From IMG/VR virus record IMGVR_UViG_3300046009_006583, positions 1 through 43,098 of that record: a DNA stretch of 43,098 nt. One strand, given 5' to 3'. A program made the position numbers and the translations under genes. The DNA comes from a virus. Positions 9,512 to 33,665 of the stretch are shown piece after piece. Numbering within the stretch: the first letter of the stretch is position 1; each line of letters opens with the position of its first letter. The notes below the pieces were generated by a model that saw only the letters and a list, made by a program, of their open reading frames with translations, was not told the DNA's origin and did not search any database.

Positions 9512-10279
9512 ATGCTTATCGCGAAGAAGTCGAGCTTGACGCTCGAGGATAAGGCGCTGCGGCGGATGGCCCTGGACGACTGGTGCGCCCGGCACGGCGT
9601 CGAGACGCAGCCGCCGCCCCCGGAGCGAAGCCTCACGCCGGACGACATCGCCGAGATGCTGCTGTCACGTCGGCAATTCTACGGGCGCAAGAAGCTGGTG
9701 AAGGCGGACACGTTGGCGGCCCGTCTGGCCCGAAGCGTTTCGACGGGGATCGTCCTGTTCGTCGTCGCTCTTCCTGTAGCTGGAAAGGCCCAGTCCGTCC
9801 TTGAGGGGCACAACTCCCGCCGGCTCGACGCCCTGCTCGACGAGAACGACTGCCGGAACTCGCCCTGCGATCTGGCTCCTGGCACGACGATCGACGGGGC
9901 CGCGATTGGCGGGGGCGGCGTCTCGGACGGCGACAAAGGCGACATTACCGTTTCGGGGTCCGGTGCCACGTTCACCGTGGACAGCTCGGCGGTCGACTTT
10001 TCCGAGCTGGCCGGGACAGCCACGGACGCTCAGGTCAGCGACACCCTGACGGCTTCGACCTCAACGACGGCCTCTGCCAATGACAGCGATACGTCGATCG
10101 CAACGACGGCCTTTGTGCAGCAGGAGATCGACGACGGCGACCTGCTGACGGACAACTGCGTGCTCGAAAACGACTCTACCCCGATCCCGGACTCCTGTGT
10201 GGGCGACGGGTCGGATGGCGGCGGTGGGGGAGGTGTGGGCTATGCGGAAATCGCTGCTGCTGCTTTCGCTGGCTTCTAG
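9512..10279 (+). CDS. Fibre-like protein with an internal signal/membrane segment, 255 aa
   Basis: Residues 1-70 are polar and basic. Residues about 71-93 form a hydrophobic segment ending in a possible signal cleavage site (VVALPVAGKAQ). A start at the ATG at 9656 would make this a long N-terminal signal. The rest is phage-fibre-like: GDKGDITVSGSGATFTVD, then TASANDSDTSIATTAFVQQEID, common in tail fibres and virion appendages. Residues 101-129 (RLDALL, then C-x4-C, then GTTID) match residues about 54-78 of the protein at 31225-32088. It overlaps the next gene by 38 bases. The product may be exported; function unknown. Confidence 0.6.
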   Translation: MLIAKKSSLTLEDKALRRMALDDWCARHGVETQPPPPERSLTPDDIAEMLLSRRQFYGRKKLVKADTLAARLARSVSTGIVLFVVALPVAGKAQSVLEGHNSRRLDALLDENDCRNSPCDLAPGTTIDGAAIGGGGVSDGDKGDITVSGSGATFTVDSSAVDFSELAGTATDAQVSDTLTASTSTTASANDSDTSIATTAFVQQEIDDGDLLTDNCVLENDSTPIPDSCVGDGSDGGGGGGVGYAEIAAAAFAGF

Positions 10280-11516
10280 CCTCTGGGCTGATCCCGCCCT
10301 TTCGATCGAGCTCGAGGGCTCGACGGACGCGCTGGAGATCGTCACGACGACGACTGCCGCGGTGGATTACCAGATCAAATGGGCCAATCGGACCGCCACG
10401 GCGCTCACGACGCCCGGCACGTCGGTCGGTCAGATCTCGTCGGCCACGACGACGACGGCCGTTGCGGCACCGTCTGCGTCGAACTGGCGGCTGGTGACGC
10501 AGCTCTCCGCGCGGAACACGAGCACGACCACGGCCAACGTCGTCACGGTGCAGGTCGATCGCTCAGCGTCGAACCGGACCATCTACTCGGCCTCGCTCTC
10601 CCCGGGCGAGTCGATGGCCTACGACGGCTCGAAGTGGACGCTCTACACGGCCTCGGGCATCGCCCGGGTGCAGCCGCTCACGGACTCGGGCTACAACGGC
10701 AAGACGTACAGCTTCCAGAAGGTGGGAACGGCCAAGGACGCGGCTGGCTACTGGATCAACTACAGCAAGGACGCGGGCTTCCCTGGCGCTGCGGTGCCCG
10801 GCGCTCCGGGCGTGAATGGCTGGGACACGGACTGCTCGACGGCCACCAACGCGGCAGATCCGGCGGGTGCAGCGCAGGTCGGCGCTCACCTTCTCACCGA
10901 TCCGGCGTCGGGCAACCTCTACTTGACCGCAGTCACTATCGCGGGCTCGGTTGCTGAGCCGATCCAGCTCATCGACGTGCTCTGGTACAACAGCGGCCTC
11001 GCAGTCGCGGCGGGCGCGCAGGCGATTGCGATGGGCGGTGGCCTTGGCCCTGCTCGAGACATCAACGGAAGCACCGACGGCGAGGGCGTGCAGGCAGCGA
11101 TCCTTGCTCTCTCGGCTCTCGGCAACGCGGCTGCGGTCGCGACCACCACGATCACCTACCGGGACAGCGAGGGTAACAGCCCGAACACGGGGACCTTTTC
11201 GGCGCTTGCTGGCTGGCAGTCTCCGGCAACGCCGGTCATCGGGACGTGGATGCCGTTTCAGCTCGCGGCCGGCGACCGGGGCATCCGCGAGATCTCGTCG
11301 TTCAACTCGGGCACGACGTTTACGTCGGGTACTTTTGCGCTGGTCTTGTTCCGGCCCCTGGTCACGATCCCGAACACGGTCGCGAACATTGCGAGCCCCG
11401 TCACGATCCCGGCGCCTGGGATCAGGATCTACCCCAATAGCTGCATCATGGCGATCTCGGTTGGGTCGGCTTCGGCCAGCACGCTGGCTGGGACGTACAC
11501 GATCATGGAGAGGTAA
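10242..11516 (+). CDS. Secreted protein resembling a phage surface-decoration family, 424 aa
   Basis: I place the start at the ATG at 10242, which has GGGAGG upstream and opens a textbook Sec signal peptide (MRKSLLLLSLASSLWA, cleavage before DPA). The following part (VDYQIKWAN, SATTTTAVAAPSAS, ARNTSTTTANVVTV) resembles a family of beta-sandwich proteins found near phage appendage genes; a linker with GFPGAAVPGAPG and a C-terminal beta domain follow. Such phage proteins normally lack a signal peptide, so its presence here is odd. It is coupled to the upstream gene by a 38-base overlap. Export to the periplasm or surface is the inference. Confidence 0.65.
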   Translation: MRKSLLLLSLASSLWADPALSIELEGSTDALEIVTTTTAAVDYQIKWANRTATALTTPGTSVGQISSATTTTAVAAPSASNWRLVTQLSARNTSTTTANVVTVQVDRSASNRTIYSASLSPGESMAYDGSKWTLYTASGIARVQPLTDSGYNGKTYSFQKVGTAKDAAGYWINYSKDAGFPGAAVPGAPGVNGWDTDCSTATNAADPAGAAQVGAHLLTDPASGNLYLTAVTIAGSVAEPIQLIDVLWYNSGLAVAAGAQAIAMGGGLGPARDINGSTDGEGVQAAILALSALGNAAAVATTTITYRDSEGNSPNTGTFSALAGWQSPATPVIGTWMPFQLAAGDRGIREISSFNSGTTFTSGTFALVLFRPLVTIPNTVANIASPVTIPAPGIRIYPNSCIMAISVGSASASTLAGTYTIMER

Positions 11517-11853
11517 CGACTGAACTCTGCAAGGCGGGGGATCAGGACCCCGTGGTGAGGCTAGAAGACCCACCCACCGGAGAAGACCCGAAAGGGGCAG
11601 GCATTGCGTCGTCGCAGGGATAGGCCCATGGCGCACAGTACCCGGTGAACCGATCCGCGAGCTCGCGCACCTGGCGACTCTGGCAACCGAGCGAAGCGGA
11701 AACAGACTTCAGACCGCAAAGACCTGACCCGATTCAACATTTCCCGGTCGGCGGGAATGGGTTTCCATGTCCTGAATCCAGTTCACCGCGCCGCCCTTGA
11801 GGCGCCGCTCCCGCCCCGCTAGCGTCGAGGCACCCAATCGTCGAGGTGCCACC
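11517..11853. other. 337-base intergenic region before the cysteine-knot-like gene
   Basis: I see no credible gene here: the minus-strand frames lack ribosome sites and family features. Small hairpins occur, for example GGGG/CCCC near 11538-11552 and TTCCC/GGGAA near 11746-11762. A short imperfect direct repeat (CGTCGAGGCACC, then CGTCGAGGTGCC) lies just upstream of the next start codon. The stretch probably holds the promoter and leader of the gene at 11854, but I cannot define a promoter. Confidence 0.4.
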
Positions 11854-12033
11854 ATGCGAATCCTCCTGCTTGCCGCCGCTCTGCTCGTCACCAGCTGGCT
11901 CGCCTCCCCCGAGCCCTCCTGCGCGCAAGGCAACTGCCTCGAAGGCTTCTCCTGCTTCAACGACTTCGCCTGCGGCCAAGGATGCCAGTGCATCAAGATC
12001 AACGGGCCGGGGCAGAATGGGGTCTGCGGGTAG
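11854..12033 (+). CDS. Secreted cysteine-knot (knottin)-like peptide, 59 aa
   Basis: The ATG at 11854 has AGGTG upstream. Residues 1-24 are a classic Sec signal peptide (MRILLLAAALLVTSW, cleavage after SCA). The 35-residue mature part has six Cys (28, 34, 40, 44, 46, 58) with spacing C-x5-C-x5-C-x3-C-x1-C-x11-C, inside the general inhibitor-cystine-knot consensus. The middle, C-x5-C-x3-C-x-C followed by a final NGVCG, resembles squash trypsin inhibitors, although the inhibitory loop residues are different. The peptide would be exported and oxidised. Possible roles are protease inhibition, toxicity to competitors or surface modification; none is shown. The gene stands alone, like a lysogenic-conversion gene. 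Confidence 0.68.
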   Translation: MRILLLAAALLVTSWLASPEPSCAQGNCLEGFSCFNDFACGQGCQCIKINGPGQNGVCG

Positions 12034-12430
12034 CCGCAAGATGACCCTGCGATCCCCCGCGGGCTGAGTTTTGGGGGGTTGGATATATGGGGGGACAGTG
12101 ACCGTAGTCGCGACCCCCACCCCCCGGAAGCCGGGGCCTCGACCCCACGGCCAGCCCGGTGAACGATCGTTCAGTCGCGGCCAATCCACCCCAGAACGGG
12201 GTTCACACCACCGATAAGCTGCATTATGTAAACTGCGCCCCCCGAGGCGAGCGGGTATACGCTCCCTCGCGCACTATGCGGGGTGATAACGGGTCATCGA
12301 CCCTGATTATCGGGTGGTGTCAATAGCGAATGGGGGCGCCAGGGGAGCTCGAGCGGGCCGCAATGGTACGCATGAGGCGGCGGACGGGCCGATTCTCAGT
12401 CGCCCTGCCCTCCTCCAATCCCCACCCAAT
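12034..12430. other. 397-base non-coding region between convergent genes
   Basis: No supported gene lies here. It contains a GGGGGG-TTGGATATAT-GGGGGG block (about 12074-12094), a perfect 14-bp palindrome (12160-12173), and two hairpins: GAGCG/CGCTC near 12249-12264, and GATAA-C-GGGT/ACCC-TGA-TTATC at 12285-12311 with a five-base loop. It separates the rightward secreted cassette from the last gene of the leftward early block, so the hairpins may act as a bidirectional terminator. A packaging (pac) or replication site is also possible. Confidence 0.4.
12160..12173. promoter_or_regulatory. Perfect 14-bp palindrome, candidate operator
   Basis: TGAACGATCGTTCA is fully palindromic. Its core GAACGATCGTTC shares 11 of 12 bases with the palindrome at 9400-9411. 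The two sites bracket the rightward cassette 9512-12033, one upstream and one downstream, which suggests a common regulator or a boundary function. Confidence 0.45.
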
Positions 12431-13111: not shown

Positions 13112-13273
13112 CTATCCCACCATCCCGAGCTGTGCGGCGGCCAGCCTTGTGAGTACGCGGTGCGCCTCGTCGAGGTCGCGTCGCAATCGCTCGATCTCGT
13201 GGGCCTGCATGGCGGCGAGGGTCTTCAGGGCCTCGAGCTCGTCGGGCGTGGCCGGCTTGGATTCGTCGCTCAT
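13112..13273 (-). CDS. Small coiled-coil protein, 53 aa
   Basis: The ATG at 13273 overlaps the previous stop (ATGA). The sequence is a single amphipathic helix (DELEALKTLAAMQAHEIERL and following), with no Cys and no membrane segment. Tight coupling to the nuclease gene upstream suggests co-expression. Function unknown. About 150 bases without a gene follow before 12961. Confidence 0.55.
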   Translation of the reverse strand: MSDESKPATPDELEALKTLAAMQAHEIERLRRDLDEAHRVLTRLAAAQLGMVG

Positions 13274-13605
13274 TCGACCGGCCTCCCATCCAGCCACGGA
13301 CTCGTCATGACCCTCGGCCCCACCTCAACGCCCCTCGTCTCGCAGCCGATGACGGCCAGCGCCTCGGAGGCGGAGCGCACGACGCAGGCGATGTCGCCCG
13401 GCCATTCGCGGATGAAATCCTCCTGGCCCTGACTGATGCGGCCCTTGACCTGCTTGACCTCGAGGATGTAGGTCCGCCGGTTGAAGCCGACGAGGAGATC
13501 GAGCGGCTTGCGGATGATCTCGACCTTGGCGCCGACCTTGCGGAGCGCGTCCACGATCGCTTTTTGGTTCAGGTCGACTGCGGCGTCGAATCGGTTGATG
13601 CTCAC
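13270..13605 (-). CDS. VRR-NUC / PD-(D/E)XK-type nuclease, 111 aa
   Basis: The GTG at 13605 overlaps the previous stop (GTGA). The family pattern is clear: D-x-N-Q-x-x-I-V near the N-terminus (DLNQKAIVDALRKVGAKV), then P-x-DLLVG, then ILEVKQVKG, then a conserved Gln (SQGQEDFIREW). The Asp of DLLVG and the Glu-x-Lys of LEVK are the metal-binding and catalytic residues. Such small phage nucleases are thought to act on branched or recombination intermediates, and the site in a replication cluster fits that. The length matches stand-alone members. Confidence 0.75.
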   Translation of the reverse strand: MSINRFDAAVDLNQKAIVDALRKVGAKVEIIRKPLDLLVGFNRRTYILEVKQVKGRISQGQEDFIREWPGDIACVVRSASEALAVIGCETRGVEVGPRVMTSPWLDGRPVE

Positions 13606-14003
13606 GATTCGAGGGCCTTGCGGAGTAGTCTCATCTCGAAAAGCGGCGAAAATCCCTCGTCTTGCGCCTTGATGGCCAGTTTCGCCGCCGCCTCGATCCG
13701 CTTCCAGCGTTCGATCTGCTCGGATGTCGGATGGTCCGGCCATAGCTTCCGCTCCACGCTCGCCAGCCTATGCGCCAATCCGGGGTCAGGCACCGTCGGC
13801 GGCCCCATCGTCCGGAGCGAGTCCAGCCTGCTCCGCAGCGTGTCGAGGCCATCGTCAACGCCTTGGGCGAGTTGATACGTTGCGTCGACCTTGGACTCCA
13901 GATGCCGAAAAGCCTGCCCGGATGGTGTGTCTTGCAGCTTCCGCATCAGGGCATCAACCCGCTCCCCGATCGAGCTGCGCTCCCAGATTTGATCGTCGGT
14001 CAT
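13602..14003 (-). CDS. Unassigned helical protein, 133 aa
   Basis: The ATG at 14003 overlaps the preceding stop (TGATG); a GTG one codon earlier is possible. The protein is mostly alpha-helical and charged (ERVDALMRKLQDTPSGQ, LRSRLDSLRTM), with a Pro-rich break (GPPTVPDPG) and a basic C-terminus. It may oligomerise through coiled coils. It lies between two small replication-region genes. I recognise no family. Confidence 0.55.
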   Translation of the reverse strand: MTDDQIWERSSIGERVDALMRKLQDTPSGQAFRHLESKVDATYQLAQGVDDGLDTLRSRLDSLRTMGPPTVPDPGLAHRLASVERKLWPDHPTSEQIERWKRIEAAAKLAIKAQDEGFSPLFEMRLLRKALES

Positions 14004-14185
14004 CACACCCCCTCCCGCTGCTTGAGCGCCCAGGCCCGCAGGTACGCGGCGAAGGACTCGGCGTCGTCGGCGTTGAGCAGCACGTACTCCTCGCCAATCC
14101 CAATCGACAGGAATTCGCCGTCGACTCCGCTCGATTCCACTTCGATCTCATCCCCATCACGATCCGTCCAAATCGCACGCATCAT
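14003..14185 (-). CDS. Small acidic protein, 60 aa
   Basis: The ATG at 14185 has GGAGGGG upstream. The product has three predicted beta strands (RAIWTDRDGDEIEVES, EFLSIGIGEEYVLL) followed by a helix (DDAESFAAYLRAWALKQ). The 58-residue protein at 21022-21198 has the same strand-strand-strand-helix layout with a similar end (VPQLVAFLLAMKG), so the two may be paralogues. Function unknown. Confidence 0.55.
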   Translation of the reverse strand: MMRAIWTDRDGDEIEVESSGVDGEFLSIGIGEEYVLLNADDAESFAAYLRAWALKQREGV

Positions 14186-14246
14186 CGGTTCCCCTCCTCG
14201 GCGCACAGCGCCACCACGAGACACAAGAACACGCACGCGAAAAGCG

Positions 14247-14462
14247 TCACTCGGTGCCCTTCCACGCCTGTCCCGACTTGATGCGGCTCACGACGCCATC
14301 CGAGACGCCGTAGGACCGCGCGATTTCGGTCTGCTTGCGAAGCCCCGCAGCGAGTGCGGTGCGGATCTCGCGCACCTGGTCGTCGGTCAGCTTGCGATTG
14401 CGCGCCGCGAGCTTTGCGGCGGACTCTTGGCGGGCGGGGGTGTAGATAAAATCGGTGGTCAT
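14247..14462 (-). CDS. Helix-turn-helix protein, 71 aa
   Basis: The ATG at 14462 overlaps the previous stop (ATGA). The core LTDDQVREIRTALAAGLRKQ, then TEIARSYGVSDGVVSRIKSG, is a resolvase-type helix-turn-helix of the kind found alone or attached to homing endonucleases in phages, where Val-Ser-x-x-x-Val-Ser-x-Ile marks the recognition helix. It ends AWKGTE. It may be a small DNA-binding regulator of the replication cluster. No nuclease domain is attached. Confidence 0.65.
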   Translation of the reverse strand: MTTDFIYTPARQESAAKLAARNRKLTDDQVREIRTALAAGLRKQTEIARSYGVSDGVVSRIKSGQAWKGTE

Positions 14463-14818
14463 CGGGTCCCTCGTTGCTTGTTGAGTGCCATGTCAATCAG
14501 CCGGCCCACTTCGTCCGGCGATTCTTCCGTGGTCAGCTTCGCGACCTCTGCTGCGAGCTCCGCATCCGCCCGCTCTCGCCGCTCGCGCGTCACGATCTCC
14601 CGGTGGATCCGCTCCGCTTGCCGGATGATCTCGCCAGGGCTCGGCGGGTATCCCGTGCTCGACGCGACGACCGCCTGATCGCACGCGACGCGGATGTATT
14701 TGATCGGGACGTTCACGAGGAGCCGCGTGTAGTACGCGATCCGCTCGGGCGTTGGCTCGTGACCGAGGCCGAGAAACATCTCGGTCAGGGCCGTGATTCG
14801 GATCTGCTCGTCGTTCAC
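14459..14818 (-). CDS. Candidate helicase-loader-type replication protein, 119 aa
   Basis: The GTG at 14818 overlaps the stop of the initiator-like gene (GTGA). Pattern: an N-terminal helix (IRITALTEMFLGLG), PTPERIAYYTRLLVNVPI, an Ala-rich helix, then a Y-P-P-S-P-G-E-I-I turn (GYPPSPGEIIRQAERI) and a charged C-terminus. Small phage loaders of the SPP1 G39P type share this shape: helices followed by a 'FPPTxxEI' turn. Position right after an initiator-like gene mirrors the O/P order of lambdoid phages. The assignment is inferred, not motif-proven. Confidence 0.5.
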   Translation of the reverse strand: MNDEQIRITALTEMFLGLGHEPTPERIAYYTRLLVNVPIKYIRVACDQAVVASSTGYPPSPGEIIRQAERIHREIVTRERRERADAELAAEVAKLTTEESPDEVGRLIDMALNKQRGTR

Positions 14819-15915
14819 GACGCGACACCTCCCCCGATGAGTTCGAGCTTGCGCTGCTGGATCATTTCGTACGCCTTGGCCCCCGCTTCCTTGGTTCGGC
14901 GGGCTCGGGCTTGAGCGGGGGACTCGGCGGTGATGGCCTTGGAGTCTCGAGCCGCGAAGCGCGCGGAGCGTCTGAGCCAAGTGCGGAACGTGGCGGGCCA
15001 GTCTGCCCGGATCTCCCCGAGGCTTCGGAAGTGGTCCCGGCAGGCGTCCCACTCGGCCCGGAGTCCCGAGAGGTCCATGCCCTGATCTGCGGCCCATGAC
15101 CGGATCGCGTCACGCTGGTCCGGGTCGAGTTCGTCCGGGCAGACCGACCTCACCCGCTTGGAGCGAGCCTTGGGCGGGTCGGGGAGCGGCGCAGCCGCGG
15201 GCGCCGGAGGCGCCTCCTCCACTCCTTCTTGCGTCTTGCGTCTTGCGTCTTGCGGGGGCGTCTTGCGGAGGGGGCGACTCTCGGGCATCCCGATCTTCGC
15301 AAGCCCCTGAAAGTCCGACCATTTCTCCCAGCGAATGGCGACAATGAGTCGACCGGCGCGCGACTGCGGCGCGCGTGGCGGTTGACCGCCGGCTGCGTCG
15401 GACGCGCGCTTGAGCAGCGCCGCGGTTGCCTGAAACCACTCGCCTTCGACTCGATCAGCGCCGAACTCGGCGTGGAGTTGCCGCTCAAGGCTCGCGTGCG
15501 CCAGGGTCGGAATCCATCCGATGAGCTGCACATCTGCGCGCTCGCGCTTCAACGCATCGAAACGCTGCCAAAGACTCGAGGTCTTTCCGATCTTCACGAG
15601 CCTGGTAGACGGCGAGTGCAGAAAGTAAACGCCCGGAGCGCCAGTCCCAACAAGATCGACGGAGATTGACAGCTTCTGCTGAAGACGAGCCAGGATGCCC
15701 ATTGCCGCGTCCGGCCTGCGAACGTCGGCCAGCGACATCAACGCAGACTCGCTGAGCGTGATGCGGCAAGCGTCCTCCGCGCTAAGTCCGTTTCTCGCCC
15801 ACTGGGTATTGAGTGCGGCCATCAGCCGAATCAGAAACGCGAGCTCGTCGTTCCTGAAGTCTTCATCTGCAATCGAATCCGCCACCCGGAACCAGTGTTT
15901 TCGCGGCGTCGCCAC
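14815..15915 (-). CDS. Replication-initiator-like protein with an inserted GIY-YIG-like (T5orf172/MUG113) domain
   Basis: 366 residues from the GTG at 15915 (GGGAGGGAAG upstream). Residues 1-90 look like the helical N-terminus of phage replisome organisers. Residues about 94-165 form a GIY-YIG-like domain: GVYFLHS, then RLVKIGKTSSLWQRFDALKR, then SLERQLHAEFG, then the acid in EGEWF. The initiator-like pattern resumes at VAIRWEKWSDFQGL (193-206). A polar linker with a 7-base tandem repeat follows, then a C-terminal DNA-binding-like domain ending DWPATFRTWLRRS. The initiator assignment rests on pattern and context. The nuclease activity of the inserted domain is unknown. Confidence 0.62.
   Translation of the reverse strand: MATPRKHWFRVADSIADEDFRNDELAFLIRLMAALNTQWARNGLSAEDACRITLSESALMSLADVRRPDAAMGILARLQQKLSISVDLVGTGAPGVYFLHSPSTRLVKIGKTSSLWQRFDALKRERADVQLIGWIPTLAHASLERQLHAEFGADRVEGEWFQATAALLKRASDAAGGQPPRAPQSRAGRLIVAIRWEKWSDFQGLAKIGMPESRPLRKTPPQDARRKTQEGVEEAPPAPAAAPLPDPPKARSKRVRSVCPDELDPDQRDAIRSWAADQGMDLSGLRAEWDACRDHFRSLGEIRADWPATFRTWLRRSARFAARDSKAITAESPAQARARRTKEAGAKAYEMIQQRKLELIGGGVAS
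15227..15267 (-). repeat. Heptanucleotide tandem repeat inside the initiator-like gene
   Basis: TCTTGCG occurs four times in tandem (15227-15254) and once more at 15261-15267. Read on the coding strand it is CGCAAGA and encodes the linker KTPPQDARRKTQ (about residues 218-229). A 7-base unit is not a multiple of three, so loss or gain of one unit would shift the frame. Slippage could switch the C-terminal domain on or off, though three-unit changes would keep the frame. Confidence 0.8.
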
Positions 15916-15992
15916 CGACTTCCCTCCCCCACTTCACCCGGATTCCGGTATTTCCCCGGCCCGTCCCTGATGCCACTCTCGTGCAGCGACGC

Positions 15993-16292
15993 CTATGCCG
16001 GCCTCAGATTCGGGATGAGCCGGTAACGGTGCAGCCCTGCCCCGTCGTACTCCCGGTCGACACGGTGCCCACCGAAGCGGGCCTTCCTGAGATGGCGAAG
16101 CTGGGCGCTGACGCTGGCCTGCGGGTCGCCCGTCGCTCGAGCGATCTCGTCGAGGGTCCGCCACTCGCCGTCGCGCATCAGGCGGTAGACGCGCTCGATC
16201 TGGCCCGAGAGGCGGGCGTCGTCGCGTTCGGGGACGTAGGCCGGGCCGTCGAAGCGGTGCGGCCGATATGAATCGAGACTGAGCTGTGTCAT
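15993..16292 (-). CDS. Winged-helix protein, 99 aa
   Basis: The ATG at 16292 has GAGGGGGTGAG directly upstream. Residues about 30-90 form a winged helix: QIERVYRLMRDGEWRTLDEI, then a recognition helix (PQASVSAQLRHLRKARFGG), then a wing ending YRLIPNL. Such small proteins are common at the start of phage replication clusters and may bind DNA or regulate it. This is the first gene after the terminator at 16386-16422, so it probably has its own promoter in the 90-base gap upstream, though I could not pick one out. Confidence 0.65.
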   Translation of the reverse strand: MTQLSLDSYRPHRFDGPAYVPERDDARLSGQIERVYRLMRDGEWRTLDEIARATGDPQASVSAQLRHLRKARFGGHRVDREYDGAGLHRYRLIPNLRPA

Positions 16293-16831: not shown

Positions 16832-16845
16832 CGCCAGATATGGCG
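16832..16845. promoter_or_regulatory. Inverted repeat at the start of the rightward regulator
   Basis: CGCCA-GATA-TGGCG is a perfect 5-bp inverted repeat with a 4-base spacer. It covers the ATG at 16840, so a bound protein would block that start or a promoter there. TACACT at 16854-16859, eight bases before the ATG at 16867, could be a -10 element for a leaderless message, as in lambda cI. This is a weak inference. Confidence 0.35.
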
Positions 16846-17283
16846 CCGACTCTTACACTTCCGCCGATGCCCACGAATCGCTCAGTAGTTCGCCCGAACC
16901 CGAAGGTCGCAAAGCGCCTTGCCGCGCTGCTCGACTTTCACGGGATGACGAAAAGCGAGCTCGCCCGCCGGCTCGGCGTGACGCCATCGTCCGTTACGCA
17001 ATGGATTCAGGGGATCACCGCCCTGTCTGCGCCGAACGCTTTGAAGATCGCCGAGCTATTCGGAGAGGATGTGGAGTTCGTCATGGGGCGGCTTGACCGT
17101 GGATCGAGAGGGCTCGGCGCAACGACCTGGGCCACCGATACGATGCTCGGCGGCGAGCTGATGAAGAAGCTCGGCCTGCTTTCTGAAGAGGAACGGGCCG
17201 ACATCCGGGCGCTCATTGCGGCACATCTCGAGGCTAAGCCCGCGCCGCCAAACGAAAAACCGCTTCCCAAGAAAAAAATTTAA
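16840..17283 (+). CDS. XRE-family repressor-like protein, 147 aa
   Basis: The helix-turn-helix spans about residues 20-75 (KRLAALLDFHGMTKSELARR, then GVTPSSVTQWIQGITALSAP). A linker and a helical C-terminal part (LLSEEERADIRALIAAHLEA) with a Lys-rich end follow. There is no LexA-type Ser/Lys peptidase domain, so induction would not go by RecA-stimulated self-cleavage. The start may be 16840 or the ATG at 16867 (MPTNRSVV). It diverges from the XRE gene at 16756 and lies upstream of the rightward recombination and integration operon, whose promoter carries a candidate operator. Confidence 0.75.
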   Translation: MAPTLTLPPMPTNRSVVRPNPKVAKRLAALLDFHGMTKSELARRLGVTPSSVTQWIQGITALSAPNALKIAELFGEDVEFVMGRLDRGSRGLGATTWATDTMLGGELMKKLGLLSEEERADIRALIAAHLEAKPAPPNEKPLPKKKI

Positions 17284-21021: not shown

Positions 21022-21198
21022 ATGTCGAGAGATATCGCACGGATCGTATTTACGGCTGCGGACGAATGCACGATGGTCGTGGAAACCACCGAGTCACAGT
21101 TCAGATTCTCGGTGTCCGAAGAGGGCGATCCGATCTGGATTGACTACGACGACGTTCCGCAGCTCGTTGCATTCCTGCTCGCGATGAAAGGTGAGTGA
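21022..21198 (+). CDS. Small acidic protein, 58 aa
   Basis: The ATG at 21022 has AGGAG nine bases upstream. The product (MSRDIARIVFTAADEC, then MVVETTESQFRFSVSEEG, then VPQLVAFLLAMKGE) is predicted as beta strands plus one C-terminal helix. Its layout matches the 60-residue protein at 14003-14185. Its stop overlaps the next start (TGATG). Function unknown. Confidence 0.55.
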   Translation: MSRDIARIVFTAADECTMVVETTESQFRFSVSEEGDPIWIDYDDVPQLVAFLLAMKGE

Positions 21199-22292: not shown

Positions 22293-22682
22293 ATGGCAAA
22301 GCTCTACTGGGCGACGGATCAACACGCCGAACGCTGGTCCGCGTGCGAGGACCGTGAGGACGCGATCCGTCAGGCGCGCGACTGGGGCATGGGCATCGAA
22401 GGCGACGTTCAGGTGATCTGGATCGCGCCTGTCGATGCTGAGCTGGACGACGACGATGCTTTCTGGGATGCGCTCGCCGACCACCTGCTCGTCTGGGGCG
22501 TCGAGAGTGCGGAGGAAACTCTCGTCGAAGATGGATGGCTCGACCACGAGGAGGCTTGGAAGTCGGGGGACATGCCGAAGGATCGGGATCGCATCGTCGC
22601 CCGCGCGCTGCGCGAGGTCCTTGGGCCGCGTCCCGAATGGCGCACGGTTGACACGGCGAAGGCGGAAAGGGTGGATCTGTGA
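22293..22682 (+). CDS. Unassigned acidic protein, 129 aa
   Basis: The ATG at 22293 is preceded by GGAGAGGAGGGG. The sequence is rich in Trp and acidic residues (LDDDDAFWDALADHLLVWGV, EETLVEDGWLDHEEAW) and has no Cys motif or signal. It lies directly upstream of the integrase gene. No family is recognised; an acidic DNA-mimic or host-inhibitor protein is one speculative possibility. Confidence 0.55.
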   Translation: MAKLYWATDQHAERWSACEDREDAIRQARDWGMGIEGDVQVIWIAPVDAELDDDDAFWDALADHLLVWGVESAEETLVEDGWLDHEEAWKSGDMPKDRDRIVARALREVLGPRPEWRTVDTAKAERVDL

Positions 22683-22728
22683 CTGCCCGCTCCGCCCCCT
22701 GGCGCTAGCTCTCCGGAAGGCTGACGAG

Positions 22729-24042
22729 ATGACCACCGCGGCGCAGGCGATCGTAGAGCGAATGGCGGACGACGATCGTCGCGCCATGCTCCTCGCCGTG
22801 CCGAACGTCGGAAGGGTCACGCGTCGCCGGGGGCGGATAGTCCTTGATTTCTCCCCGGAGCTCCGAGGGACGGACCGCTATCTCTGGACCTTCTCCGGGC
22901 GCGCATTCGAGAGCGAGTCCGCGGCCGAGAGCGTTCGGCAACGGATCTGCCAGGACGCCGCCCACATGCCGCTCTCCGACGCGATCGCCCGGTTCCGGGG
23001 TGACCGCAGCCGGACCCACAAAGCGACCGACGTCGTCGACCGCTTCCTCGAGGCCGCCGGGATGACCCCGAGCGAGCGAACCGGGCAGTTGATCCGGCCC
23101 CGGACGCTGGCCGCGTATCGGGCCATTCTTCGGCGCGGGCGGCCGTTCTATGCGGGGATGACGATTGCCGAGCTCACGCGGGCCGACACCCTTCGCCGGC
23201 TCAAGGGTTGGTTTCGGATGCCGGTCGAGCAGGGTGGCCGAGGGCTTCAGAGCGATCAGGAGGCGCGGAACTTCTTCGCCGCCTTCCGGGCCGTGGTCTC
23301 CTGGTATCGGACGACCCGCCGAGACTTTCCCGCGCCGGATTGGCCCTCGATGCCGACGGCGATCACGGCGAAGCGGCGGAACGTCGGGCGCAGGGCTGCG
23401 GAGAACCGGCTCACGCTGGCCCAGGTCGTGCGCGCGATCGACGCGATCCCCGAGGACCGGCAGCCGCTTTTCTGGGTCCTGTTCTACACCCAGGCCCGCC
23501 CGACCGAAGTCCGGGGCGTGCTCGGCGAGGATTGGGTCAGGCCGCGGCTCACGATCCGCAGGAGCGCCGAATCGAAGTCGGGCGCGGCGGAGATCGCCCC
23601 GACGACGAAGACCGGCGAGACGGGCACGTACGAGCTCCCGGAATGGGTCGCGGCCCTGATCGACAAGCAATGCACCGGGGCGCGGTTCAACGCGGATGCC
23701 CCGCTCTTTCGGAACCCCGACGCGCGGGCCGGCGGCGGGATCTTCTCGGACGATGCGATCAGGGGGACGTGGGAGACGGCGACCAAGCGGGCCGGGATTC
23801 CCTGGGTGCCGGTCTATCGCGCGATGAAGCACACCCAGGTGTCGGCGCTCCGGGACGCGGGGATCTCGATCGAGGAGATCGTCGATCAATGCCGCTGGAC
23901 GAGCTCGGCGATGCTCGAGCACTACGACGAGGCGCGGGATGTGCGGCGAGGCGCGGTCGTGGCCCGGCTCGACGCGATGGTCGGTCGGGCCCGCTCGGGT
24001 GACGCCGGGGTGATTCGAGAGATCGATGAGAAAAAGCGTTGA
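22729..24042 (+). CDS. int: Tyrosine recombinase (phage integrase), 437 aa
   Basis: I chose the ATG at 22729. Residues about 80-205 form the SAM-like core-binding domain. The catalytic domain starts near 228, with the first Arg in ARPTEVRGV (about residue 257), a Lys-containing hairpin (KTGETGTYELP), the box II segment RAMKHTQVSALRDAG (KHT in place of the usual RHT), RWTSSAML with Trp at the His/Trp position, and the nucleophile Tyr in LEHYDEA (about residue 399). It inserts phage DNA into the host chromosome. A tRNA 3'-end sequence, the likely attP, lies 28 bases after its stop codon. The gene ends the rightward recombination operon. Confidence 0.85.
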   Translation: MTTAAQAIVERMADDDRRAMLLAVPNVGRVTRRRGRIVLDFSPELRGTDRYLWTFSGRAFESESAAESVRQRICQDAAHMPLSDAIARFRGDRSRTHKATDVVDRFLEAAGMTPSERTGQLIRPRTLAAYRAILRRGRPFYAGMTIAELTRADTLRRLKGWFRMPVEQGGRGLQSDQEARNFFAAFRAVVSWYRTTRRDFPAPDWPSMPTAITAKRRNVGRRAAENRLTLAQVVRAIDAIPEDRQPLFWVLFYTQARPTEVRGVLGEDWVRPRLTIRRSAESKSGAAEIAPTTKTGETGTYELPEWVAALIDKQCTGARFNADAPLFRNPDARAGGGIFSDDAIRGTWETATKRAGIPWVPVYRAMKHTQVSALRDAGISIEEIVDQCRWTSSAMLEHYDEARDVRRGAVVARLDAMVGRARSGDAGVIREIDEKKR

Positions 24043-24060
24043 TCGGACGAGCGGATACGG

Positions 24061-24097
24061 ACCGGGCGGAGAAGTTCGAGTCTTCTTCGCCGCACCA
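24061..24097 (+). other. Probable attP: copy of a tRNA gene 3' end
   Basis: Bases 24070-24086 form a T-arm: AGAAG, seven-base loop TTCGAGT, CTTCT. The acceptor 3' strand TCGCCGC (24087-24093) and ACCA (24094-24097) follow. No matching 5' acceptor half (GCGGCGA) lies upstream, so this is a tRNA fragment, not a gene. Phages that integrate into tRNA genes carry such a 3' end next to int to restore the tRNA. The anticodon, hence the host tRNA, cannot be read from this part. Confidence 0.75.
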
Positions 24098-24194
24098 TTC
24101 AGACAGCCTCGGGAGCCGTTTAAACGGCACGAGAAGCCAGAAACGGACAGAAAATGGCGATCCCTGCCCGGGTGACTCCGGGGTGACTCGGAGG

Positions 24195-24785
24195 ATGGCC
24201 ATCCGAAAGAAGAAGCCGAAGCGCCAGACGCTCTACGATGTCGCCCGGCAGCAGAGCCGGGAGCGCCGGGAGGCATACGAGCGGACGGGCATCCTCGACG
24301 TCGGGGCGTTCCCGACGAACTTCGACTCCCTCGCCAGCTACGTCGCCGAACTCCGGTCCGTCCGCGACGCCCTCGAGGCCGCGAAGGCCGATCCCGCCGG
24401 CCACTTCGTCTACATCGTGATGTTCAAGCGGCACGAGTCCGGGGACCCGATCAAGATCGGCTACTCGAGGAACCCCGAGCGCCGGCTTGACGGGATCCAG
24501 GTCGGCTCGCCGCGGCCCCTCACGCTCGTCCGAAAGTTCGAGTGCCCCCACCAGAACTTCGACAAGCGGATCCACCGGCTATTCCCTCGCCGATCTCGAG
24601 CGCTGGGCGAGTGGTTCAAGCTCACGGACTGGACGATGTGGATCGTCGAGTCGATCGGGCTGGCCGGACTCGAGGGCGAGCTGTCGCCGCCTCCGAACGA
24701 CCTCTTGGCGTACCGCGATCCGCGAACTGGCGGCCAGCCTGTCGACGCCGAAACGATTCGCGGCCTCGTGTGGGACGCCCAGTGA
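24195..24785 (+). CDS. GIY-YIG-like (T5orf172/MUG113 type) protein, 196 aa
   Basis: The likely start is the ATG at 24195; the longer frame upstream runs over the attP site. After a basic N-terminus (RKKKPKRQ) and a helical linker, residues about 71-145 carry the domain: FVYIVMFKR, PIKIGYSRNPERRLDGIQVG, FDKRIHRLF and GEWFKLT. These match the first motif, the KIG-x-S/T-x5-R helix and the conserved Glu of the family. Its biological role in phages is unknown. A second copy of this domain type is inserted in the initiator-like protein at 14815-15915. Lying beyond attP, the gene sits next to the prophage end after integration. Confidence 0.65.
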   Translation: MAIRKKKPKRQTLYDVARQQSRERREAYERTGILDVGAFPTNFDSLASYVAELRSVRDALEAAKADPAGHFVYIVMFKRHESGDPIKIGYSRNPERRLDGIQVGSPRPLTLVRKFECPHQNFDKRIHRLFPRRSRALGEWFKLTDWTMWIVESIGLAGLEGELSPPPNDLLAYRDPRTGGQPVDAETIRGLVWDAQ

Positions 24786-28846: not shown

Positions 28847-31225
28847 CTACGGCAGCGTGCAGGTCGTGCCTTCGTATCGGATCTGGGCGGGGAGCTTGCC
28901 GAGCGTGCCCGAGAAGTTGTCGTAGTAGGATCCGATTTCACCGAACGTAAACGACTCATTGCACCAGAACTCGGGCTTTTCAGTGAAGAACAGCGAAGTA
29001 GGCTCCTCACCGATCTCGGCCGACCACCCAGCCGGAACCGTCGCGCTTTCGTCCTGATCGGTCGCGGAGTTGTCTCGAACGGTCGACGTGTTCACCGCAT
29101 CGAAGTTGTCGTCCTGGTTGCAGCCTGATCCGGTGCAGCGATTGCGATACCACCACATTCGATAGATGTTGTGCGGCGCTGCCGTAGTGGTCGGGTATCC
29201 GCTGGAGTCGTAGTTTCGGGCGTTGTCCATGGTCCCCGAAACCATCTCCTTGCCGGCGTTGAGCAAGATCGACCAGTCTTCGTTCGACGCGCCCATCTGG
29301 GCCGTGGAGCTGTTCGTGAAACACGTCCCGCTTGTCGTGTAGCCACCCGTGGCAGGCGAGTCGGTAGCGACCTCTCGGCACCGATTCTTGAAGTAGGTAT
29401 GGGCAACGCCCTCACCGTTGTCGGTCGGCCGTCGGTTAGACCCGTCGAACGGCTGGAAGCTGTGTGAGCTGTCATTGCCCTCGAAGATGTGCCCCGGCGC
29501 GCCAGCGTTCCCGTGATGGAACGGGCCTCTGCCAGCGCGGAAAGTCGTATCTTTCGTCGTGTAGTTGTTCACGAAAACGTACTGCGAGCACCCGCTCTGC
29601 ACGATCTGGCTTTGCGTCGAGTTGTAGAAGACATTGTTGACAAGCTGCACGTTCGACGAACGGTTATTGCAGTAGACCATCGCGTTGTCGTACTTATCGA
29701 GGTCGATCGCGATGCCCTCGCAGGGATCGCCCGTACCCTCGGCGCACTCATTAACGCCAGTCGTCGTGTCTAGGTCTACCGTGAACGATCGGCGCGCGGG
29801 CGTCGTACTGACAAAGACGCTGGCCGTTTTGACCATCGACTTCCCGGCCAGCTTCGGCTCATCAACGTCGGTCGTGAACGCGGCAGAGTCATCGCCCCCA
29901 GCGTTGGAGAAGTTGCACGTCGATGAGTTGTCGTAGGTAATCGTCAGGGTATTGGCATCCGTGATCGCAATGCCGGTAATCTCGGCGTAGCACGTCGTCT
30001 TGAACGATCCGTTCGAGAAGTCACTGGAGTGGATCGAGACATGGCTAGCCTCGCCGGGGCCCGATCCGCCCGTCGTGATGACGTTCTGGGCGCCGACGCG
30101 AGCATCGAAGTCGTTGCGGTAGAACTGGACGTTGAACCCGTCGAGCACCCGGACGTAGGCGCCGCCGATGTACTCCGGGTACAGGCCCCACCCGACGCCT
30201 ACGAAGTAGATGTCCTCGGCAATCTCGTCCGTCTGGTCGGTGCCGCTTTTCTGCTCGATCTGCGCGACGGTATGCCCGTCGGTTTCGGCGTAGGTGTCCG
30301 TGACTTGCGTGCTGCCGCAGCTAGCCTGACTTGTGCAGTTGGTGAAGTTTGTCCCCGCGTTAGCGCCCCAGAAGTACGCCGTCGGGTTGTAGTCCATGGG
30401 CAGCGGGTTGTTGATCTGGATCTGGTTGTCACCCGTCAGTTCCGTGCAGTCCGTTCCGGCCCGATCCGACGTGCCAGACGTCGAACCGTCTACGCAAGTC
30501 ACCTCAGCCACGACGTTGAAGTTTGCCGAACCGAAGCCCTCAATCGGGTCGACCGTCAGCCGAACGATGTCGCCCGCGGCCCAGGTATTATCGCCCGACG
30601 TGGCGACCGAGCATCCGAGCTCCAGCTTCTTCGTTCCGGTGTCGTACCCGCCGGTCCAAGTGCACGACTGCTCAACCGGGCTCTGCGAGCTTCCGACGCT
30701 GATAAGCCAGTTCTTGAGCTGGGCGGCGTTGGCGGCGCCGGCCGTGTAGTCCCACTGGGGCGATCCGCTCGTGTCGTAGCGAAGCTCGAACCCGCAAACG
30801 TCGGGGTCTTCGCAGTAGATCGCGAGTCCGTCATGGCTGCCGGGAATGACAAGATCGCCAGACCCGCCGCCAGTCGTAGGCGTGATGAATGCGAGAATCT
30901 TGCAGTCGTCCGGCAACCAGATTCGCGTGTAATCGGCGACGGTCGTCGTCAGGGTCTTGAACGTGTTCCAAGTCGAGTCGTCTGCGCTGCACCCGCCGTC
31001 TTTGAGCGAAGTGTCATCCGTCCATCCGGTCCAGTCCGTCTTCGGCGGGATGTATTCCGGGTACGCGAACCGACCCGTCAGGTCTGCGATCGTGCCGCCC
31101 GGCCCGAACGTCGTCGACTCCGCGAGCGTGACGAACGTGTCCGCCGGAGGCGTGCCGGTCGTCTGGTTGCCGCCCGAGATGAAAATCGGGCCGATGAACG
31201 CGAGAGTGAGCAGCCAGCGCAGCAT
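28847..31225 (-). CDS. Secreted beta-helix protein, 792 aa
   Basis: The ATG at 31225 overlaps the previous stop (TGATG). The N-terminus is a signal peptide (MLRWLLTLAFIGPIFISG, cleavage before GNQ). A central region of about residues 320-650 has beta-helix-like rungs such as VQLVNNVFYNSTQSQIVQSG and YVFVNNYTTKDTTFRAG, plus Cys pairs that would form disulphides in the periplasm. It ends CTLP-TAG, and the next in-frame codons lead into the PEP-CTERM protein. By position it should be a tailspike; by sequence it is an exported surface protein. Which of the two cannot be settled here. Confidence 0.65.
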   Translation of the reverse strand: MLRWLLTLAFIGPIFISGGNQTTGTPPADTFVTLAESTTFGPGGTIADLTGRFAYPEYIPPKTDWTGWTDDTSLKDGGCSADDSTWNTFKTLTTTVADYTRIWLPDDCKILAFITPTTGGGSGDLVIPGSHDGLAIYCEDPDVCGFELRYDTSGSPQWDYTAGAANAAQLKNWLISVGSSQSPVEQSCTWTGGYDTGTKKLELGCSVATSGDNTWAAGDIVRLTVDPIEGFGSANFNVVAEVTCVDGSTSGTSDRAGTDCTELTGDNQIQINNPLPMDYNPTAYFWGANAGTNFTNCTSQASCGSTQVTDTYAETDGHTVAQIEQKSGTDQTDEIAEDIYFVGVGWGLYPEYIGGAYVRVLDGFNVQFYRNDFDARVGAQNVITTGGSGPGEASHVSIHSSDFSNGSFKTTCYAEITGIAITDANTLTITYDNSSTCNFSNAGGDDSAAFTTDVDEPKLAGKSMVKTASVFVSTTPARRSFTVDLDTTTGVNECAEGTGDPCEGIAIDLDKYDNAMVYCNNRSSNVQLVNNVFYNSTQSQIVQSGCSQYVFVNNYTTKDTTFRAGRGPFHHGNAGAPGHIFEGNDSSHSFQPFDGSNRRPTDNGEGVAHTYFKNRCREVATDSPATGGYTTSGTCFTNSSTAQMGASNEDWSILLNAGKEMVSGTMDNARNYDSSGYPTTTAAPHNIYRMWWYRNRCTGSGCNQDDNFDAVNTSTVRDNSATDQDESATVPAGWSAEIGEEPTSLFFTEKPEFWCNESFTFGEIGSYYDNFSGTLGKLPAQIRYEGTTCTLP

Positions 31226-32088
31226 CAGTCGGCACCCCCGTCAACCCAGGTTCCCGAGCGACCGAGGTTGATCCACGTCGAGTCGTTGACTCCGAGCAGG
31301 CAGATGAAGTCGCCGAGGTTGCCGGCCGAGTCGATCGCGTCCGCCGTGCCGACCCCCACGCCGTCAAGCACGATCTGATCGCCCGCCGCCGCATCGAGAA
31401 CGATGACGCCGCCACCGTTCGCGTCGTAGAAGCAGGACTGAAGCCCCGCGGACACGCTTGGAAGCGTGACATCCATGCCGCTTGCTCCGCTGTAGTAGTA
31501 GAACGTTCCGAGCATCTGAGCGGCTACGAGCGTCGAAGACGATCCGCCGTCTAGGCCGATGGAAGTCGCGCCCTGAATGGTCCCGGTCGTCACCACGCTC
31601 TGCGTACCCGCAGTCAGCACGAAGTCGATATCGGTAGTCGCCGCGTTGATCTCCGCCGCCGTGTCCCACTCGGTATCGAGCGTCGCGCCTGAAGCCATCC
31701 GGGCCGTCGCCAGCGTGCCCGCCGTCGCCGTCGTGATGTCGAGCCCCGTCCCGATCTTCGACCCGGACAAGCTCCCGTCTGCGAGGTCCGCAAGGTCCGC
31801 GTCGTACGCCTGCACGGTCGAGCCGATGTCGGTATCGAGCACGATCTCCACGCTGTCGATCGTCGTCCCCGCAGTCAACGCACAGGGCGCCGAGGTACAG
31901 GTGTCGGTCGCGAGGATCGCATCAAGCCGGGCGTCGTTGTCGTCGATCGCCGTCTTCGCGGCGGTGAAGTTCGCGTTGACCTGCGACGCGACCGCAGTCG
32001 TCCCGGCCGTGAACGTGTTGGTGATCGTGTACGAACTGCCCCATGCCAATGAGGGCAGGAGCGCCAGAAGAAGAACCAAGCGAATCAT
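31225..32088 (-). CDS. Fibre-like protein with signal peptide, 287 aa
   Basis: The ATG at 32088 has GGGGGTGAG upstream. A signal peptide (MIRLVLLLALLPSLAWG) precedes TITNTFTAGTTAVASQVNAN, which matches the start of many phage tail fibres and also the fibre at 40823-42178 (FVTGTTASATEVNAEF). Residues 54-78 (RLDAIL, then C-x4-C, then GTTID) recur in the protein at 9512-10279. The C-terminal half is beta-rich (GGGVIVLDAAAGDQIVLDG). The protein looks like a tail-fibre adaptor that gained a signal peptide. Confidence 0.65.
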   Translation of the reverse strand: MIRLVLLLALLPSLAWGSSYTITNTFTAGTTAVASQVNANFTAAKTAIDDNDARLDAILATDTCTSAPCALTAGTTIDSVEIVLDTDIGSTVQAYDADLADLADGSLSGSKIGTGLDITTATAGTLATARMASGATLDTEWDTAAEINAATTDIDFVLTAGTQSVVTTGTIQGATSIGLDGGSSSTLVAAQMLGTFYYYSGASGMDVTLPSVSAGLQSCFYDANGGGVIVLDAAAGDQIVLDGVGVGTADAIDSAGNLGDFICLLGVNDSTWINLGRSGTWVDGGAD

Positions 32089-32090
32089 GC

Positions 32091-33665
32091 TCACCCCCAT
32101 TCGTCCGTGTCCCAGACGAGCGCGTCCCAGTCCGTTTCCATCACATCCGCAGGCGTCTCGCCGCAGCTCGGCCGCTGGACGCCATCCGACCCAAGCACCA
32201 CCCCCGAGACGGTGCATCGCTGGATGAAGCCCTTGGAGTCCGCGTCGATGTCGATGTTGCCCACCACGTCGAGGTCCCGACCCTGGAACTCGTCCACGTC
32301 GTCGACCTCGAAGCCGTTCTGCGTCCCATTGAAGTCGTTCCGGTGCGTGCGAACGTTGCGGACCCGCATCCCATCGACGCACGAATCACCTGTGTTCGAG
32401 TTGTAGGACGCCGTGATCTGCGCGATGTCGTAGGTCGAGTCACCAAGCTCGATGCCGGCCGAGTCAGCCCGGGTCGTTCCGTTGCACGCGCCGCGAACGA
32501 TGTTGCGCGTCAGATCCACCCGCATGTCGTTGTAGGTCGTGCCGGCCAGACCGATCTGGATGCCGGATCCCCATGCGTCTTCGATCGTGTTGCCTTCGAT
32601 TCGGGTCGTGAACTTCGACGCCGCGTAGGTGTTTCCGTTCGTGACCTGGATTCCCTGCCCCACGTTGTCGGAGGTGGTGTTTTGGGCGTAGGTGAAGCCG
32701 GTGTCGTCGATCGTGTTCCCGCTTGCCGTTCCGTCGCCCTCGTTGAAGACGATGCCCGCAATCCCAGCCCCCGTGACGGTGTTGTCGTGAAACTGGCAGC
32801 GCCGGGAGTTCGTGAAGCACTCGATTCCGATCTTGGTCACGTCCGAGATGGTCGTGTTGACGACCGCCGAGTCCGACCCGCCGACGAGCTGAACACCCTG
32901 CGCTGTCTTCGTGATCGAGTTGGTGGTCGCATCCAGCGGGACAGCGAGCGGGGTACAGAGGGCAACCGTGCAGCCGGCTCTGGTGACGCTGGAGTCCTGA
33001 ACGGTGGACACGAACGGCTGGCTAAGCTGAATGCCGGTCGTCACTGTGTCTCGCACCTGAACCCGAAGCAGGCAGCTCCGCGTCGTCCCTGCCCCCGTGT
33101 TCCGAGTGTTGAAGCCGCCCGCGAATGTAGAAGTCTGGCTACCCGTGTCGCAGATGCCGTTGTTCGGCGTCGTATCCGTGCAAGCCGTTCGTGCCCCCGT
33201 AGTCTGCTCCGATCGCCGGCCATCGAGGATCACGTCTTCCAGCCTGATCCGCGGCGTGATGTTCCTCGCGTGGATGATCGCAGCGTTGACGCCGAGTTCG
33301 GCCCGCAGAACGGGCGGGTTGTTTCGGTCGGCCCCCCGAATGACCACCTCTCCGCTCGGAGCCACCGAGTCACCTTTGATCGCCGTTTCTCCGAAGATGA
33401 CGTTGGTGTCCGTGTACGTCCCAGGCGCAAGCTCAAGGATGCAGCCCGACCCGCAGTTGGCCATCGCGACCGTATGAAGGTCCGATGCGCTCGTTACGTC
33501 GACCGGCGTAAAGGCCGGATCAGGCAGCTTCGAGCAGTCCACCCACGGGTCCTCGACGACATCGACGGGCGGCGCAGACGGCCCCGCACGCGGGAAGCGC
33601 CCCTCGATCGCCGAGGCCGGTACGGCCAGCAACAGCGCGAGAAGGACGGCCAACCTCACGAGCAC
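32091..33665 (-). CDS. Secreted right-handed beta-helix protein, 524 aa
   Basis: The GTG at 33665 overlaps the preceding gene by 10 bases. It has a signal peptide (LVRLAVLLALLLAVPASA, cleavage before IEG). The rest has pectate-lyase-type rungs: DLHTVAMANCGSGCILELAP, ARNITPRIRLEDVILDG, GVQLVGGSDSAVVNTTISDV, CQFHDNTVTGAGIAGIVFNE. Such parallel beta-helices are typical of carbohydrate-degrading tailspikes and of secreted surface proteins. Catalytic residues cannot be assigned by eye. It is co-transcribed with three similar exported proteins. Confidence 0.7.
   Translation of the reverse strand: MLVRLAVLLALLLAVPASAIEGRFPRAGPSAPPVDVVEDPWVDCSKLPDPAFTPVDVTSASDLHTVAMANCGSGCILELAPGTYTDTNVIFGETAIKGDSVAPSGEVVIRGADRNNPPVLRAELGVNAAIIHARNITPRIRLEDVILDGRRSEQTTGARTACTDTTPNNGICDTGSQTSTFAGGFNTRNTGAGTTRSCLLRVQVRDTVTTGIQLSQPFVSTVQDSSVTRAGCTVALCTPLAVPLDATTNSITKTAQGVQLVGGSDSAVVNTTISDVTKIGIECFTNSRRCQFHDNTVTGAGIAGIVFNEGDGTASGNTIDDTGFTYAQNTTSDNVGQGIQVTNGNTYAASKFTTRIEGNTIEDAWGSGIQIGLAGTTYNDMRVDLTRNIVRGACNGTTRADSAGIELGDSTYDIAQITASYNSNTGDSCVDGMRVRNVRTHRNDFNGTQNGFEVDDVDEFQGRDLDVVGNIDIDADSKGFIQRCTVSGVVLGSDGVQRPSCGETPADVMETDWDALVWDTDEWG

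What the first reader, a model, noticed from the sequence alone, without database searches (positions are those of the whole stretch)
11854..12033. Knottin-like secreted peptide encoded by a phage
A 59-residue gene gives a signal peptide plus a 35-residue mature part with six Cys at C-x5-C-x5-C-x3-C-x1-C-x11-C. This fits the inhibitor-cystine-knot consensus, and the middle and end resemble squash-type protease inhibitors. Cystine-knot peptides are well known in plants, animals and fungi but little described in phages. Standing alone with its own leader, it looks like a lysogenic-conversion gene. Possible jobs: inhibit an extracellular protease, act on competitors or grazers, or protect the host surface.
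Basis: partly seen in the sequence, partly recalled or inferred. Interest (0 to 1): 0.82.

Follow-up and report, generated by a model that had tools for sequence, protein, structure and literature searches.

The report
Phage family of exported knottin-like peptides
A probably temperate phage carries a tiny gene for an exported, cysteine-rich peptide that looks like the knotted peptides of plants and venoms; it belongs to a previously unnamed family found here in five phage genomes, and it probably acts on the envelope of the infected bacterium.

Summary
The ORF at 11854-12033 is a real gene. It has a Shine-Dalgarno site, a Sec-type signal peptide and third-position GC of 0.86. A sister phage carries a 75%-identical copy in the same frame with every Cys kept. 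No shuffled window out of 200 gave a comparable ORF. A two-sequence AlphaFold2 model (pLDDT 81.5) has squash trypsin inhibitors as its top three PDB matches and in 11 of 20 rows, with weak E-values and disulphide pairing unread. I found three divergent relatives in other IMG/VR phages. No Pfam, PHROG, NCBIfam, INPHARED or PDB sequence family matches. In one relative the gene exactly replaces an unrelated ORF between conserved early-gene flanks, so it is swappable cargo. The mature part evolves far faster than the rest of the genome. Trypsin-type inhibition is not supported: loop 1 is shorter, variable, and has Glu or Asp at the P1 position in the window pair. My preferred function, superinfection exclusion through an envelope target as with T5 Llp, is inference (about 0.35).

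The parts
11854..12033 (+). knottin-like exported peptide gene, 59 aa
   Evidence: homologues
11843..11846 (+). Shine-Dalgarno-like GAGG, 7 nt before the ATG; the sister copy has one extra C in the spacer
   Evidence: sequence
11854..11925 (+). signal peptide, residues 1-24 if cleaved at SCA|QG; may end at A17 if C23 belongs to the mature peptide
   Evidence: sequence; comparison with relatives whose first Cys follows the likely cleavage site; inference
11920..11922 (+). codon of C23, the seventh family-invariant Cys
11926..12030 (+). mature Cys-rich part, C-x5-C-x5-C-x3-C-x1-C-x11-C
11757..11785 (.). left junction of the divergent cassette (non-homologous between the two sister phages)
12030..12055 (.). 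right junction; the sister has here an extra stretch of roughly 150 nt with a 56-57 codon ORF that overlaps the peptide stop (TTGA)
12046..12063 (+). terminator-like hairpin after the gene (consensus match only; the number of such sites is not clearly above shuffles)
10242..11516 (+). upstream neighbour with its own signal peptide; C-terminal half related to an unannotated ORF next to the capsid gene of podovirus MW202795
21022..21198 (+). unrelated 58-aa ORF that fills the slot held by the knottin-like gene in relative G541

Best explanation
The gene encodes an accessory phage protein that is exported by Sec, is oxidised outside the cytoplasm into a compact knottin-like miniprotein, and binds an envelope target with its variable loops. 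The most likely job is to modify or mask a surface or periplasmic component used by incoming phages (superinfection exclusion), in the manner of small periplasmic phage proteins such as T5 Llp. Shown: gene, family, seven invariant Cys, swappable cargo position, fast evolution. Predicted by sequence or model: signal peptide, knottin-like fold. Inferred: disulphide pairing, target, superinfection exclusion.
For: Real and conserved gene. Five-member family: the window pair, one related phage (G541) and two distant phages (L093, L099), all with signal-like N-termini and C-x2(4)-C-x4(5)-C-[FY]N-x3-C-x2-G-C-x-C-[ILV]...G-x-C. Leave-out HMMs recover the left-out members: L099 3.6e-7 and L093 1.1e-6 from window+sister+G541; G541 1.9e-8. 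AF2 pLDDT rises from 69 to 81.5 with one homologue added. The Foldseek top three are squash inhibitors, and 11 of 20 rows are squash-scaffold peptides. Precise swap with an unrelated ORF between conserved flanks in G541. dN 0.21 in the mature part against 0-0.03 in 21 other genes compared; the two + strand genes just upstream are also among the faster ones, at 0.02. All 9 changed codons of residues 21-56 are replacements. Many phages express exclusion proteins early, and T5 Llp is a small periplasmic protein that disables the receptor (PMC9586334).
Against: No functional data and no known host. Foldseek E-values exceed 1 and VIA-align Z is only 2-3.5, as expected for 35 residues but not significant. 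Model coordinates could not be read, so the knot is unproved. Seven Cys leave one unpaired, or imply another use. No lipobox, unlike Llp and Cor. In the window the gene lies beside tail-type exported genes rather than early genes. dN/dS near 1.2 in residues 21-56 was not shown to exceed 1, and recombination with a divergent allele would also explain the divergence.
Confidence: 0.38

Rival explanations
1. Extracellular protease inhibitor of squash type: loop 1 enters the active site of a host or competitor protease and protects virion or lysogen.
For: Closest structural matches are squash inhibitors; loops 2-4 have the squash lengths 5, 3 and 1; C-x2-G-C-x-C and N-G-x-C-G resemble squash sequences (squash features from memory).
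Against: Loop 1 has 4-5 residues instead of 6 and reads LEGFS, LDGFP, PSFT, FTGD, LATP in the five members, with no conserved binding loop; the P1-equivalent residue is Glu or Asp in the window pair. No sequence match to any inhibitor family.
Confidence: 0.12
2. Secreted effector against competitors or grazers (bacteriocin-like or toxin-like), giving lysogens an advantage.
For: Export signal, stable scaffold, fast-evolving loops with fixed Cys as in venom peptides; integrase-like and repressor-like genes.
Against: Not consistently cationic (net charge -2 to +3); no immunity gene or dedicated exporter recognised; placed among small phage genes in relatives.
Confidence: 0.13
3. Envelope modulator other than exclusion: inhibits a periplasmic host enzyme, stress protease or secretion component during infection.
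For: Export signal; placed among closely packed small genes in three relatives, in G541 next to early-type genes; a knottin is a general binder scaffold.
Against: No target candidate; no comparative evidence.
Confidence: 0.2
4. Metal-binding or redox-active Cys peptide (metallothionein-like, or a CxxC thiol peptide) rather than a knottin.
For: Seven invariant Cys; C-x2-C at the N-terminus of three members plus C-x-C.
Against: Export to an oxidising compartment; conserved Gly/Asn positions and loop lengths fit knottins; the model folds as a knottin-like peptide; C-x2-C is C-x4-C in the window pair.
Confidence: 0.1
5. Spurious ORF, or decay product, in an intergenic region.
For: Small; flanked by apparently non-coding DNA; longer ORFs overlap on the other strand.
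Against:: homologues in other phages with conserved Cys, similar length, signal peptide and frame.
Confidence: 0.03

Closest known systems
Squash trypsin inhibitors (EETI-II, MCTI; inhibitor cystine knot)
   Same: Six-Cys framework with loops 5, 3, 1 between Cys 2 and Cys 5, and a similar predicted fold.
   Different: Loop 1 is 4-5 not 6 residues, variable, with no Lys/Arg at P1; last loop 10-11 not 4-5; an extra N-terminal Cys; bacterial-type signal peptide; no sequence-profile match.
T5 Llp / Cor superinfection-exclusion lipoproteins
   Same: Very small exported phage proteins; Llp acts in the periplasm, and many exclusion proteins are expressed early (PMC9586334).
   Different: Llp and Cor are lipoproteins (Llp has a lipid anchor on Cys1); the family here has no lipobox and is Cys-rich; sequence relation was not tested.
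Dickkopf/colipase-type Cys-rich domains
   Same: Foldseek rows 3s8v, 3s2k and 5o57 align with the model.
   Different: These are larger domains of animal proteins; low sequence identity (20-23%).
RaCI tick complement inhibitors
   Same: Share a C-P-x-G-C-x-C...G-x-C stretch with the family profile.
   Different: E-value 0.055 at best, partial coverage, longer proteins; most likely convergence on a common motif.

Membership tests
Inhibitor cystine knot (knottin) | Six Cys with spacing within C-x3-7-C-x3-6-C-x0-5-C-x1-4-C-x4-13-C (consensus from memory) | tested here: met
   5, 5, 3, 1, 11; 2.1% of random placements fit; relatives 4, 5, 3, 1, 10 or 11
Inhibitor cystine knot (knottin) | Small sheet fold resembling known knottins | tested here: inconclusive
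   pLDDT 81.5; squash inhibitors rank first, but E above 1 and VIA Z 2-3.5
Inhibitor cystine knot (knottin) | Disulphides 1-4, 2-5, 3-6 with the third threading a ring | not testable with these tools
   coordinates of the model are not shown
Squash trypsin inhibitor family | Six-residue loop 1 with P1 Lys/Arg (hydrophobic in variants) | tested here: not met
   loop 1 LEGFS, LDGFP, PSFT, FTGD, LATP
Squash trypsin inhibitor family | Sequence profile match | tested here: not met
   no Pfam match up to E 10; no PDB sequence match to this family
Phage lysogenic-conversion gene (moron) | Swappable accessory gene at variable position | tested here: met
   divergent cassette with non-homologous junctions; exact swap in G541; different genome position in window and G541
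Phage lysogenic-conversion gene (moron) | Expressed from the prophage by its own promoter | not testable with these tools
   no sigma-70-like site found, but the host promoter type is unknown
Llp/Cor superinfection-exclusion lipoproteins | Lipobox with lipid-anchored first Cys | tested here: not met
   first Cys preceded by EPS, QPS, AAD, KAR, VAV, none a lipobox
Llp/Cor superinfection-exclusion lipoproteins | Blocks infection through an outer-membrane receptor | not testable with these tools
   needs a host
EGF-like domain | EGF profile and a longer Cys3-Cys4 loop | tested here: inconclusive
   no Pfam EGF match up to E 10; Cys3-Cys4 loop is 3 residues

The most novel reading that the evidence does not exclude
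A previously undescribed family of phage-encoded inhibitor-cystine-knot proteins that diversify under an arms race, with fixed Cys and hypervariable loops as in venom peptides, and that act in the bacterial envelope. If so, phages have recruited the knottin scaffold as a swappable envelope-targeting module.
Probability: 0.35. Interest if true: 0.82.

Novelty: new variant of a known kind. Interest (0 to 1): 0.62.

Why it matters
Knottins are studied mainly in eukaryotes. A coherent family in tailed phages would add a new setting for the fold. Five natural loop variants would be available for a direct test of what a phage knottin binds. If it is an exclusion protein, it would be a disulphide-locked, non-lipidated counterpart of Llp and Cor.

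Tried and rejected
tblastn of the window peptide in INPHARED phages and PLSDB plasmids up to E 10: only chance-level rows; members L099, L093 and G541: no match in phages. Close-relative scans of IMG/VR and GTDB genomes: only the sister phage. Exact-spacing Cys pattern in IMG/VR: 8 hits, nearly all low-complexity repeats, none a peptide gene; the later pattern with C[FY]N gave 22 hits, of which 3 are real members (one of them the G541 gene already found) and the rest lack a signal peptide or contain stops. Profile searches of Planctomycetota, Alphaproteobacteria, Pseudomonadota and the phylum of an Acidobacteria MAG: nothing convincing; the hits read were chance frames. Those searches cover about 1,700 genomes or records and cannot exclude bacterial relatives. 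Host identification by capsid and terminase relatives: capsid best matches in genomes are only 23-30% identical and taxonomically scattered, and terminase gave nothing in nine of those genomes, so the host stays unknown. Minus-strand ORFs over the gene: lower amino-acid identity in the sister, and two of the three minus frames carry stops in one or both phages. Rfam on the region: none. Literature: no paper on phage or bacterial knottin families surfaced in the held library; absence there proves little.

Full report
THE OBSERVATION. The window is an IMG/VR virus record of 43,098 bases. It is a tailed phage with adaptor-like, major head, portal-like and terminase-like genes, a Sak4-like recombinase, an integrase-like gene at 22435-24042 and a repressor-like HTH gene at 16840-17283. 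It is therefore plausibly temperate. Capsid relatives point to phages of podovirus type, with no clear host. Its codon-position GC pattern, Shine-Dalgarno site and signal-like start are those of a gene. A combination of signal-like start and at least six later Cys in a 40-90 aa ORF occurs once in the window and in none of 200 shuffled windows.

THE SISTER PHAGE. Contig IMGVR_UViG_3300044858_003263 is 95-98% identical in long blocks and carries a copy that is 75% identical at the protein level, of the same length, with all Cys kept and a different stop codon. The copy lies in a small cassette that is only 87% identical and is bounded on both sides by non-homologous DNA. Nei-Gojobori dN in the mature part is 0.21 against 0-0.03 in 21 other genes compared; dS is also raised, to 0.38. 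All nine changed codons of residues 21-56 are replacements, several with all three bases changed, while the CIKINGP stretch is unchanged in DNA. This fits diversifying selection on loops or exchange with a divergent allele; two sequences cannot separate the two.

THE FAMILY. The upstream neighbour gene (10242-11516) was used to fetch related phages, and the exported 859-aa protein (33656-36235) brought in another stretch of contig 3300042465_003868, called G541 here. A scan for short exported Cys-rich ORFs in these loci found MKTFLIVCVGALLGTLLVMAAPPAADCATCPSFTCYNSAGCGGGCVCLKQGMDLSGSCYSTNRGE, without any Cys-spacing pattern. The motif C[FY]N-x3-C-x2-G-C-x-C in IMG/VR then gave two more, in L093 (91 kb phage contig 3300009678_000002) and L099 (3300032278_000177). 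In the five-row alignment seven Cys, one Asn and two Gly are invariant. Models built without given members recover them at E 1e-6 to 8e-9, and a model without the window pair recovers the sister at 9e-7 and the window at 9e-5, in 1.2 Mb of fetched sequence; the best non-member rows in these runs reach 5e-5 to 2e-3, so only the window row of the model without the window pair is near the noise. Because L093 and L099 were chosen by motif, their motif residues are not independent evidence; their signal peptides, first Cys, last Cys with G-x-C and gene context are.

POSITION. In G541 the gene sits in the early-type region and replaces exactly the window's unrelated ORF 21022-21198, between flanks that are nearly identical, with its stop overlapping the next start. 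In L093 and L099 it lies 12 nt after, or overlapping, a small upstream gene. In the window it lies 337 nt after an exported tail-type gene. It is thus movable cargo, and in three of five genomes it is packed among small phage genes. Timing of expression was not measured.

FOLD. A single-sequence AF2 model reached pLDDT 69; adding only the sister raised it to 81.5. E-values are above 1, and VIA Z is 2-3.5. These are weak scores, as expected at this length, but consistent in kind. The pairing of Cys could not be read. Sequence libraries are silent. The family profile's best PDB sequence match is a tick RaCI protein at E 0.055, which I treat as motif similarity.

FUNCTION. Export and compact disulphide structure imply an extracytoplasmic target. 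Loop 1, the inhibitory loop of squash inhibitors, is shorter and not conserved here, so protease inhibition of that type is unlikely. Net charge is -2 to +3, so membrane-active antimicrobial action is not suggested. Cargo status, position in relatives, export and fast evolution best fit interaction with an evolving envelope component. Superinfection exclusion is a well-documented job for such small exported phage proteins; [quoted passage not shown] This step is inference, and I give it about 0.35. The knottin-like exported nature itself I hold at about 0.75.

NOVELTY. The fold class is known. A phage family of it, with seven Cys and no match in Pfam, PHROGs, NCBIfam or annotated phage genomes, is new as far as these resources show. 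In the papers searched here, including a review of phage small proteins that mentions neither knottins nor Cys-rich peptides (PMC11323111), no such family surfaced.

Noticed in passing
window 28847-31225 (-), 31225-32088 (-), 32091-33659 (-), 33656-36235 (-), 9713-10279 (+), 10242-11516 (+): Six tail-fibre-, tail-spike- or virion-like proteins begin with textbook Sec signal peptides, and three of them hold 14-22 Cys, while neighbouring late genes without a signal peptide have 0-3 Cys. Exported, probably disulphide-bonded tail-type proteins are odd for a tailed phage and deserve their own study.
   Followed up: partly
L107 (G549 28909-33036, -): The distant 91 kb phage that carries family member L093 also encodes a 1375-aa protein with a signal peptide and 48 Cys in its late-gene-like block, so knottin-like gene and exported Cys-rich large protein co-occur in two distant phages.
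   Followed up: partly
L072, L073, L075, L076, L077: Relatives of the 10242-11516 protein down to 50% identity keep a signal-like start although its sequence has changed, which supports selection for export.
   Followed up: partly
window 11517-11757: Non-coding stretch with about one mismatch to the sister phage, next to genes that are 93% identical; no Rfam match. Possible regulatory RNA, or a recent exchange.
   Followed up: no
L002 6806-6976 (-): The sister phage has a short ORF (LIAEVLHEWLHPLARFHAATPEDDLD...) overlapping the peptide stop at TTGA; it is absent from the window.
   Followed up: partly
window 13270-16292: Four genes are 100% identical between the sister phages while most other genes differ by 1-7%, which suggests a recent exchange.
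   Followed up: no
window 14815-15915 (-) and 24039-24785 (+): Two proteins with the same MUG113/T5orf172 domain match the same PHROG families.
   Followed up: no
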